NCBI GenBank assembly: GCA_022340285.1 | Contig: JAJDOG010000022.1 | Coordinates: 62,001-126,000 of the forward strand | Length of the DNA: 64,000 bases | Reading direction: 5' to 3' | Source of the DNA: Betaproteobacteria bacterium | GTDB taxonomy: Bacteria; Pseudomonadota; Gammaproteobacteria; Burkholderiales; SG8-39 | Part shown: piece by piece, positions 24,200 through 25,803 of the stretch | Numbering within the stretch: position 1 is the first letter of the stretch | Layout: each line of letters starts with the position of its first letter | Notes under the pieces: model-generated | Told to the model about the DNA's origin: nothing | What the model saw: the letters and a program-made list of their open reading frames with translations, nothing else | Database searches by the model: none | Translations under genes and position numbers: made by a program

Positions 24200-25081
24200 A
24201 TGAAGGTCGGAATCATCGGGCTGGGCCGGATGGGCCAGGGAATCGCCAGCCGGGTTGCCGGCGCGGGCCATGATCTTTGTGTCTACAACCGCACCGCGGA
24301 CAAGGCCGCAGCGCTTGCGAAAGCGGGTGCGAAGATCGCAAAGTCGGTCGCGGGCGCGTGCGAAGGCCGCGAGGTCCTGATCACCATGCTCGCCCACGAC
24401 GAGGCGCTCGACGAGGTCACGCGGGGCCCGAGCGGCGTCCTCGCGTCGCTGCCCAAGGGTTCGATACACGTCGCGATGGGCACGCACAGCATTCTCGCCA
24501 CCCGTGCTGTCAGCCAGGCACACGCCGATGCTGGACAGCTTTTCGTTGCTGCGCCGGTGCAGGGCCGCCCCGAGGTGGCCGCCGCCGGCCAGATCGGCAT
24601 CTTTGCCGCCGGGCCCGCCGATGCTGTGACCCGTTGTCGGCCGCTCTTCGACGTCATCGGCCGGAAGACGTACGAGGCGGGAACCGATCAGACGACCGCT
24701 GCCGCGATCAAGGTCGCGCACAACATGGTGCTTGGATGCGCGATCGAGGCGCTCGGGGAGGGGTTCGTCCTCGCGGAGAAGTACGGCGTGAAGCGCCAGC
24801 TTTTCTACGAAGTGCTTACCGACGTCCTGTTCGCCTGCCCTGCCTACAAGGGATACGGTAAGCTCATCGCCGACGAGGACTACGACAAGATCGGCATCAC
24901 CGCGCGGCTCGCTCTCAAGGACGCGGACCTCGCGTTCGCCGCCGCAGAAGACGTCACGGTTCCGCTACCTAGTGCCAATGCATGGCGCGACCGGCTGCTC
25001 GGCGCGATTGCGCACGGGCTCGCCGAGAAGGATCAGTCGGTCATCGCGCACGCGCAGGCGAAGGCGAGCGGGTTGCGCTAG
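24200..25081 (+). CDS. NAD(P)-dependent oxidoreductase, 3-hydroxyisobutyrate dehydrogenase family
   Basis: 293 residues, beta-hydroxyacid dehydrogenase fold. The N-terminal GLGRMGQGIA binds the dinucleotide and Lys171 (KVAHN) is the catalytic lysine. Asn30-Arg31 after the second strand (VYNRT) suggests NADP preference. The usual substrate-binding GGxxGA loop reads APVQGRPEVA, as in related glyoxylate/succinic semialdehyde reductases of this family. Last gene of the island operon, 16 bases after the TIM-barrel gene. Confidence 0.88.
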   Translation: MKVGIIGLGRMGQGIASRVAGAGHDLCVYNRTADKAAALAKAGAKIAKSVAGACEGREVLITMLAHDEALDEVTRGPSGVLASLPKGSIHVAMGTHSILATRAVSQAHADAGQLFVAAPVQGRPEVAAAGQIGIFAAGPADAVTRCRPLFDVIGRKTYEAGTDQTTAAAIKVAHNMVLGCAIEALGEGFVLAEKYGVKRQLFYEVLTDVLFACPAYKGYGKLIADEDYDKIGITARLALKDADLAFAAAEDVTVPLPSANAWRDRLLGAIAHGLAEKDQSVIAHAQAKASGLR

Positions 25082-25395
25082 CGATTCTCCTGTGAGTTCG
25101 TTTGCCGCGGGCTGGCGGGGCAGCGTCCATGCCCGTCCGGCGCCTTGGGCCGCAGACGTGCCCACCTATGGGTGCCCGCCTCGCGGCGGGCAGTCGACCC
25201 ACGACTACCCGCACACGAGCCACCCATGACGGAGGGCGCGGCCCAAAGGCGCCGGCCAGTCATCGAACGCAGCTCCGAGTGAAGTCGGTGCCGTGGGAAG
25301 GCCTTCGGTGCTCATCAAGACAGGGTGCCTCCATGTGGCGAGGCAGCCCACGTCATGACCGGTGATATCATCGCCCACCCGAGGGAGGAGCACAA
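25082..25395. other. 314-bp gap containing a structured repeat element
   Basis: No gene seen. Most of it is occupied by the folded element at 25137-25255 (listed separately). A possible promoter -10 (ATATCATC, about 25364-25371) and GAGGGAGGAG site immediately precede the DoxX gene. Confidence 0.5.
25137..25255. repeat. long inverted repeat enclosing a nested perfect hairpin (possible structured RNA)
   Basis: Outer arms CCGGCGCCTTGGGCCGC (25137-25153) and GCGGCCCAAAGGCGCCGG (25238-25255) are reverse complements apart from one extra A. Inside lies a perfect 8-bp hairpin TGCCCGCC-TCGC-GGCGGGCA (25173-25192) and a small CCCA/TGGG stem. No T-run follows on either strand, so it is not a simple terminator. 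Confidence 0.6.
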
Positions 25396-25803
25396 ATGAC
25401 CGGAGCCGAATCCGCTTACCTCGCCGCGCGTGTGCTCTCGTGCGGCATCTGGATCGCCGCAGGCTGGTACAAGGCGAAGCATTTCAACAAGACCGTCGGC
25501 GAGATGACCGACCATGGGATCCCGTTCCCGCGCTTCGTGTTGCCCTGGGTGCTGGCGCTCGAATTCGTCGGGTCCGCAATGCTCATCTTCGATTATCACG
25601 TCTGGGCGGCGGCGCTCGCCTGGATCGTGTTCACCATTCCGGCGAGCATCATCTATCACCTGCGTTTCATGGTGCGCCAAGGCATCATCGACTTCGTGCA
25701 GTTTCTGCTCTTCTGGAAGAACGTTTCCATCACGGGCGGGCTCATCGCCCTGATTCTGCTGGACCCTTCGCGCCCGCCGTGGTTCTTCTCTGCCAACAAC
25801 TGA
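25396..25803 (+). CDS. DoxX-family membrane protein
   Basis: 135 residues with four predicted transmembrane segments (approximately 10-25, 47-65, 70-88, 108-125) and the DoxX-like layout. Family members are small inner-membrane proteins linked to quinone or thiosulfate redox chemistry in some organisms, but most have no assigned role. Preceded by GAGGGAGGAG. Its own upstream region separates it from the island operon. Confidence 0.7.
   Translation: MTGAESAYLAARVLSCGIWIAAGWYKAKHFNKTVGEMTDHGIPFPRFVLPWVLALEFVGSAMLIFDYHVWAAALAWIVFTIPASIIYHLRFMVRQGIIDFVQFLLFWKNVSITGGLIALILLDPSRPPWFFSANN

What the first reader, a model, noticed from the sequence alone, without database searches (positions are those of the whole stretch)
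25137..25255. 119-bp element with a 17-bp outer stem and a nested perfect hairpin
Seen: near-perfect inverted arms 84 bases apart enclosing an 8-bp GC-rich hairpin; no T-run on either strand. It sits between the island operon and DoxX. It could be a small RNA, a regulatory leader, or a mobile palindromic element.
Basis: seen in the sequence. Interest (0 to 1): 0.5.

Follow-up and report, generated by a model that had tools for sequence, protein, structure and literature searches.

The report
Mobile hairpin repeat with conserved fold
The 119-base hairpin is one copy of a scattered, apparently mobile bacterial DNA repeat whose long fold is kept by matching changes in both arms, on one strand only, and which matched no family in the public RNA library.

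Summary
The inverted arms are real, but they are the middle of a larger repeat, about 25113-25295, that folds almost end to end (z -6.4 and -6.2). Its own genome has 23 DNA matches: six near full length, the rest partial or mosaic. A covariance model of the minus-strand core (25142-25248) finds 11 copies here, 23 in a congener, and patchy copies elsewhere (6 of 98 genomes of the family, 4 of 399 of the order). Covariation is strong: 97% of cells pair, 74 double-change cells against 24 shuffled (0/500). Wobbles are G-U on the minus strand (81 against 4 A-C), so one strand carries the fold. In the loci searched, 12 of 12 close pairs diverge; 9 of 15 partial copies join the left end of one hairpin to the right end of the other. 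Two congeners lack the element at this site. No Rfam match; no Y1 transposase in this genome. Best reading: a non-autonomous, REPIN/ERIC-like mobile repeat with a strand-specific hairpin. Whether that strand acts as ssDNA or RNA is open.

The parts
25113..25295 (.). Whole repeat element (A-type hairpin plus short conserved tail) as shared with other genomic copies
   Evidence: BLAST matches to other copies span query 32-214 of window:25082-25395; 80-83% identity in the 5 other near-full copies
25142..25248 (-). Structured core, 107 model positions, 35 pairs; minus strand is the folding strand
   Evidence: R1 match 96.5 bits (the window is one of the 19 sequences R1 was built from); covariation; G-U against A-C asymmetry
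25137..25153 (.).
25238..25255 (.). 3' outer arm, one bulged base
25180..25219 (-). Apical hairpin; loop (minus strand GTGGGTC, family consensus GTGTGTT) at 25196-25202
   Evidence: alignments A1 and A3; stem sequence replaced with compensation in L082, L016, L252 and G425 copies
25165..25179 (-). Asymmetric bulge 1 region (minus strand CGGG-(n)-ACCC), conserved across relatives
25148..25163 (-). Asymmetric bulge 2 region (minus strand GGGCACGTCTGCGGCC; typical GACGCGCTTTGCGGC or GGGCGTTTGCGGCC)
25275..25288 (.). Short conserved tail CCGAgtgaagTCGG, start of the spacer of the composite unit
   Evidence: recurs as CCGA-N6-TCGG in L002, L005 and L017, degenerate in L003
24200..25081 (+). Upstream gene: 3-hydroxyisobutyrate/6-phosphogluconate dehydrogenase-like (PF03446, PF14833)
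25396..25803 (+). Downstream gene: DoxX family (PF07681)

Best explanation
It is a single-hairpin derivative of a non-autonomous mobile intergenic repeat. Shown: the family is multi-copy, dispersed, mosaic and patchily distributed; its core folds on one strand only; the stems change by matched double changes while two asymmetric bulges and the apical loop stay; in three lineages copies also occur as divergent pairs. Inferred: the unit that spreads is the divergent pair (left hairpin on the minus strand, short spacer, right hairpin on the plus strand). Each hairpin extrudes as folded single-stranded DNA and is recognised by its bulges, wobble pairs and loop by an enzyme supplied in trans, in the manner of IS200/REP elements, so structure rather than stem sequence is conserved. 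Single hairpins (as here) and left-end/right-end chimeras are deletion products. The enzyme is unknown; it need not be a RAYT, since none was found in this genome.
For: Copies: 23 DNA places, 28 with a chimeric query, 11 by covariance model in this genome and 23 in G002. Patchy: 6 of 98, 4 of 399, 1 of 369 in the class sample, the own genome; G484 12, G485 8, G486 1, G487 2, G488 1, G489 1 (genomes chosen because they hold a copy). Covariation. One-strand fold: 81 GU against 4 AC cells, minus MFE lower in 19 of 19. Divergent pairs: 12 of 12 close neighbours among the loci searched, gaps -11 to 287 nt. Chimeras: 9 of 15 partial copies printed join A-left to D-right. No element at this site in G001 and G003 (R1 with filters off finds at best 9.9 and 13.0 bits). 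REP-like motif GGGGTGGT within 350 bp of 12 of 26 copies in the genus, 8 of these at 45-54 bp on the A side; 0 in the 64-kb window. REPIN and TnpAREP papers give the precedent for ssDNA, bulge and strand-specific recognition (PMC3116915, PMC8266576, passages).
Against: No transposase was found: PF01797 has no match at E<=1e-3 in G000, G002 and G003 and one split gene in G001, although G002 holds core copies up to 96% identical, which suggests recent spread. Target-site duplications were not established (a few flanks looked at by eye). No transposition intermediate can be seen here. Most copies in G000 are single hairpins, not pairs. The third G425 pair (C15) does not follow the left/right subfamilies of the other two. 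The structure data fit an RNA as well.
Confidence: 0.55

Rival explanations
1. A structured RNA (independent small RNA or 3' untranslated element) that acts after transcription of the minus strand, for example as an RNA stability or protein-binding element; the repeats spread by some DNA route but are kept for the RNA.
For: Covariation plus G-U rather than A-C wobbles on one strand; conserved bulges and GUGUGUU loop. In rough gene calls the element follows a gene on its own strand more often than not: after removing 2 duplicate places, ++ 11 and +- 16 against -- 4 and -+ 4, 8 more with one neighbour missing. ERIC is a precedent for mRNA effects that depend on orientation (PMC2229807, passages).
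Against: No Rfam match, which does not exclude a new family. Ten neighbouring proteins at seven loci share no theme. The window copy is antisense to both neighbours. 12 of 12 close pairs are divergent, which suits DNA ends better than RNA genes. Gene calls are crude, and a place between convergent genes is common for intergenic repeats (recalled).
Confidence: 0.3
2. The matched arm changes are not selected: templated correction of quasi-palindromes (template switching between arms) keeps the hairpin, and the family is merely decaying repeat debris.
For: Double changes outnumber one-sided ones even between close copies: among 15 pairs at >=90% identity 18 double, 13 single-sided, 8 broken. G001 at ffh-rpsP seems to keep only fused outer arms (by eye; R1 13.6 bits).
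Against: Correction should remove bulges and wobbles, yet two asymmetric bulges, the apical loop and U-G at columns 45/80 (20 of 34), 56/72 (14 of 34) and G-U at 61/67 (31 of 34) persist through wholesale stem replacement (A3 fitted to the model), mostly in the sense that suits one strand. The same fold occurs in distant Betaproteobacteria.
Confidence: 0.13
3. A member of the REP/REPIN system proper, mobilised by a RAYT (Y1 transposase).
For: Inverted doublet architecture, REP-like neighbours at near-fixed distance, REPIN precedent.
Against: Each half is itself a hairpin of 107 core positions rather than a 20-40-bp palindrome. No Y1_Tnp match in 3 of 4 genomes of the genus, including the richest. 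No GTAG/CGTC tag was noticed (not searched).
Confidence: 0.12

Closest known systems
REPIN / BIME (REP doublets)
   Same: Inverted pair of palindromes as the presumed replicative unit, extragenic, non-coding, compensatory changes common (PMC3116915, passages)
   Different: Each hairpin is several times larger with two conserved asymmetric bulges; no RAYT found in this genome; ordinary REP-like repeats lie outside the pair as separate modules
ERIC/IRU, YPAL/RU-2, Correia/NEMIS and other bacterial MITE-like repeats
   Same: Roughly 100-170-bp intergenic palindromic repeats, dispersed, some with size variants (PMC2229807, passages)
   Different: No sequence relation tested; here arm sequence turns over completely between genomes while the fold is kept; fixed long terminal inverted repeats and TSDs were not established
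BRE, Beta-proteobacterial repeat element (Bordetella, Polaromonas, Delftia)
   Same: Betaproteobacterial GC-rich, mostly intergenic repeat with mobile features, overlapping the sRNA genes bprJ1/bprJ2 (PMC3110155: passages and section 14)
   Different: BRE is about 90 bp and some loci hold tandem arrays; ours was seen singly or in divergent pairs. Its sequence is not in the text, so identity could not be tested; R1 matched only 4 of 399 genomes of the order
IS200/IS605 ends and integron attC sites
   Same: One-strand folded DNA in which unpaired features matter for strand choice (likeness drawn in PMC8266576, passages)
   Different: No tnpA in this genome; orfB and integron integrases were not searched; copies are dispersed, not in arrays

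Membership tests
REP/REPIN (RAYT-mobilised) | RAYT (Y1_Tnp, PF01797) gene in the genome | tested here: not met
   no match in G000 (100% complete), G002 and G003; one split gene in G001
REP/REPIN (RAYT-mobilised) | Inverted doublets as a recurrent arrangement | tested here: met
   12 of 12 close pairs divergent in 3 lineages; but many copies are single
REP/REPIN (RAYT-mobilised) | 20-40-bp palindrome | tested here: not met
   core is 107 model positions, whole element about 183 bp
REP/REPIN (RAYT-mobilised) | GTAG or CGTC tag | not tested
   not searched
MITE | Multi-copy, short, dispersed | tested here: met
MITE | Fixed-sequence terminal inverted repeats shared with an autonomous element | tested here: inconclusive
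   ends of the composite share at most about TCAGCG by eye; in the 12 pairs the gap is at most 287 nt, so no gene-bearing version was met
MITE | Empty sites / target-site duplication | tested here: inconclusive
   site lacks the element in G001 and G003 but flanks are too diverged for an exact junction; TSDs only glanced at by eye
Known Rfam RNA family | Covariance-model match | tested here: not met
   0 at gathering for the window; 7 loci with copies at E<=1 give only a sub-threshold PYLIS_2 elsewhere in L140
Structured RNA (new) | Covariation with controls and strand-specific wobble | tested here: met
   also expected of a folded ssDNA element
Structured RNA (new) | Transcript | not testable with these tools
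   no RNA-seq
Intrinsic terminator | Stem followed by T-run | tested here: not met
   no T-run on either strand (by eye)
BRE (Bordetella) | Sequence similarity | not testable with these tools
   sequence not in the text of PMC3110155

The most novel reading that the evidence does not exclude
A new class of mobile structured element of Betaproteobacteria: paired, divergent, ~107-nt strand-specific hairpins with two conserved asymmetric bulges, moved as folded single-stranded DNA (or through an RNA) by an enzyme that is not a RAYT and has not been identified.
Probability: 0.3. Interest if true: 0.75.

Novelty: new variant of a known kind. Interest (0 to 1): 0.55.

Why it matters
Bacterial palindromic repeats are usually traced by sequence, so families whose arms turn over completely are easily missed. 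This one was recovered across lineages by its fold, and its bulges, wobbles and divergent pairing give concrete predictions about what recognises it. A genome with near-identical copies and no detected RAYT makes the question of the mobilising enzyme directly testable.

Tried and rejected
Rfam at gathering (window) and at E<=1 (7 loci): no usable match. Plasmid and phage records with a 531-bp G002 unit: none. IMG/VR pattern scan: 32 loci, none matching R1 at E<=0.1, so those pattern hits look like chance. Of 94 genome contigs pattern loci, 23 hold strong R1 matches (over 50 bits), in 8 genomes; the other 71 were treated as chance, although one of them (L117, from the carrier FR_12) has a weak partial match. 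Adjacent transposase: 10 of the 26 ORFs listed near the element at eight loci were scanned, from seven loci; eight gave enzyme, transporter or phospholipase-like families and two gave nothing; the other 16 were not scanned. Intrinsic terminator: no T-run. Regulatory leader: the window copy is antisense to both neighbours. Literature: one search returned nothing; the listings led to passages on REPIN, TnpAREP, palindromic REPs (PMC3733652), small mobile repeats and BRE; no title or abstract start in those listings describes this element, but only open-licence papers are held.

Limits. Gene orientation rests on crude ORF calls; its 45 rows include 2 duplicate places (L131=L261, L124=L269) and 8 with a missing neighbour. 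One search used 26 chosen copies of the genus. A3 is fitted to the R1 structure, so its pair counts lean towards it; A1 (MAFFT) is the fairer test, but the structure was derived from A1. Cells and wobbles count sequences, not events. Searches of many genomes used stricter filters and capped candidates (9-39 scored per genome), so counts there are lower bounds. The readings of decayed remnants at ffh-rpsP in G001 and G003 are by eye; R1 scores them at chance level (13.6 and 12.8 bits).

Full report
OBSERVATION. The arms at 25137-25153 and 25238-25255 are there (17 against 18 nt, one bulge, 84 bases apart). The 156-nt stretch 25120-25275 folds with z -6.4 (plus) and -6.2 (minus), 0 of 200 shuffles as good in either case. 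The foldback continues outside the reported coordinates, and the repeated unit runs from about 25113 to 25295. It lies between a 3-hydroxyisobutyrate-dehydrogenase-like gene (24200-25081) and DoxX (25396-25803), both on the plus strand.

COPIES. In the window's own assembly (4.37 Mb, 120 contigs) DNA search gives 23 places at E<=0.01 including itself: six near-full copies (80-83% identity for the five others) and partial ones; a few of the 23 places lie close together and may belong to one copy. Of 15 partial copies printed, nine (L008-L014, L018, L021) begin with the left arm of this element and go on, directly or after a short insert, into a second module (GAGGACGCGCCTTGCGGCACCATGAGCCCGACACGGGCC or part of it). 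That module proved to be the right arm of a second, homologous hairpin. Calling the hairpins A and D, these chimeras keep the left end of A and the right end of D and lack the middle. In the congener G002 four units are printed; three show a REP-like repeat outside both hairpins, inverted to each other, and the fourth runs off its contig.

RELATIVES. DNA similarity reaches only the 4 genomes of the genus (own included) among 61 tested. One pattern scan of GTDB genomes gave 94 loci, of which 23 carry strong R1 matches, in 8 genomes titled Burkholderiales, Betaproteobacteria or Proteobacteria MAGs: SJ14, FR_12, REEB99, BP4.bin38, RIFCSPLOWO2_12_FULL_62_13, RYN_582, Prado217, K_Offshore_80m_m1_178. 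Copies per genome by model: G000 11, G002 23, G001 5, G003 1, G091 1, G015 1, i.e. 6 of 98 genomes of the family. In the order 4 of 399 had matches, adding G397 (1) and G425 (5). The six genomes reached through loci had 12, 8, 1, 2, 1 and 1 (G488 there and G091 share contig number and coordinates, so are probably one genome). In the class sample only the own genome of 369. Multi-genome counts are lower bounds.

STRUCTURE. On 19 minus-strand cores aligned by MAFFT (A1) RNAalifold gives 35 pairs, 20 with double changes. Counted on that structure, 97.0% of cells pair (shuffled 86.2), 74 cells have double changes (shuffled 24.1, 0/500), covariation score 0.378 (shuffled 0.175; slid by 1-3 columns at most 0.087). 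On 34 sequences fitted to the model (A3) 26 of 35 pairs have double changes and the score is 0.514 against 0.183 shuffled. Stems are replaced wholesale: L082, L016, L252 and the G425 copies have unrelated apical stems that still pair. What stays is the apical loop (GUGUGUU in most), an asymmetric bulge after CCGGG before ACCC, and a second asymmetric bulge around GACGCGCUUUGCGGC. Some relatives have another apical domain altogether (L241, L247 and several G484 copies).

STRAND. Of 663 pair cells on A1, 81 are G-U and 4 A-C; in the best structure of the opposite strand they are about equal (10, 13). The minus strand is the more stable in 19 of 19. Cells are not independent: most wobbles come from a few columns conserved as U-G or G-U, and at one of these (30/78) an alternative U-A pair is possible. 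For the window alone the shuffle-corrected z does not favour the minus strand. R1 separates the strands, e.g. 106 against 25.9 bits for L150. So one strand, as RNA or as single-stranded DNA, is what folds.

ARCHITECTURE. Among the loci searched, all 12 pairs of close, distinct matches are (-) then (+), with gaps of -11 to 287 nt, in three lineages: the genus (C46 of G000; C71, C59, C84, C2, C75 of G002), G425 (C10, C38, C15) and G484 (C181, C248, C68, the last with one weak partner of 25 bits). In G425 the left hairpins of C10 and C38 are 92% and the right ones 89% alike, against 74% and 79% between left and right within each pair, so these pairs seem to have been copied as units; the third pair (C15) does not fit. 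A REP-like motif GGGGTGGT lies within 350 bp of 12 of 26 copies examined in the genus, in 8 of them at 45-54 bp on the A side, and does not occur in the 64-kb window.

SITES. At the orthologue of this locus G003 has a short-chain dehydrogenase gene (PF00106) and G001 what looks like its remnant (by eye); neither holds the element (R1 with filters off at best 13.0 and 9.9 bits). Between ffh and rpsP (SRP54 and Ribosomal_S16 domains) G000 has a full element in one orientation and G002 a full one in the other (80.4 bits). By eye G003 has a decayed one and G001 only fused outer arms, but R1 does not recognise these (12.8 and 13.6 bits).

CONTEXT. With rough gene calls for 45 hits (2 duplicates), orientation relative to the folding strand was: +- 17, ++ 12, -- 4, -+ 4, one neighbour missing 8. 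The window copy is of the -- kind. Ten neighbouring proteins from seven loci include no transposase (10 of 26 listed ORFs). PF01797 has no match in G000, G002 and G003 and one split gene in G001.

MECHANISM. Best reading: a non-autonomous mobile repeat in which a pair of divergent one-strand hairpins is the recognised structure, with single hairpins and chimeras as deletion products; the one in the window is a single left-type hairpin with a remnant of spacer. Shown: repetition, mosaicism, patchiness, fold conservation, strand asymmetry, pairing. Inferred: mobility as ssDNA, recognition in trans, unit borders. The RNA reading is not excluded. A third possibility, templated correction of the arms, is suggested by the high share of double changes among close copies (18 double, 13 one-sided, 8 broken in 15 pairs of >=90% identity), but it does not explain the persistence of bulges and wobbles in one strand's sense.

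KNOWN KINDS. It works like REPIN/BIME, ERIC or other MITE-like repeats, and is best filed as a new variant of that kind. It is not shown to be a member of the RAYT-dependent REP system, because the RAYT test failed in the genome itself. The Bordetella BRE is the nearest published betaproteobacterial repeat met, but its sequence could not be compared.

Noticed in passing
G002 loci L242, L091, L093; G000 loci L225, L226: A separate REP-like repeat, CCCCTCCTT..AAGGAGGGGTG-hairpin-GGGGTGGTT, recurs in G002 (many matches to query positions 1-45) though no Y1_Tnp/RAYT match was found in three of the four genomes of the genus.
   Followed up: partly
L227 (G000), L287 (G002), L285 (G001), L286 (G003): The ffh-rpsP interval carries a full element in G000 and in G002, in opposite orientations; G001 and G003 show possible remnants by eye that R1 does not recognise.
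   Followed up: partly
L288 (G001), L289 (G003): At the orthologue of the window locus a short-chain dehydrogenase gene lies between the dehydrogenase and DoxX in G003, with an apparent remnant in G001; in the window the gene is gone and the element is there.
   Followed up: partly
G484 loci L261 (1195-1316), L275 (1779-1900), L277, L279; G485 locus L280: Some relatives keep the basal stem and bulges (GGGTCCCGG..CCACCCGC) but have a different, larger apical domain, so the top of the hairpin seems exchangeable.
   Followed up: no
L020 (G000:C50:93525): The outer arms of an A-type element enclose a REP-like repeat in place of the usual interior.
   Followed up: no
G002 contigs C7, C44, C48, C75, C84: Several copies lie at contig ends, so assemblies break in these repeats and copy numbers in draft genomes are probably underestimates.
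   Followed up: no
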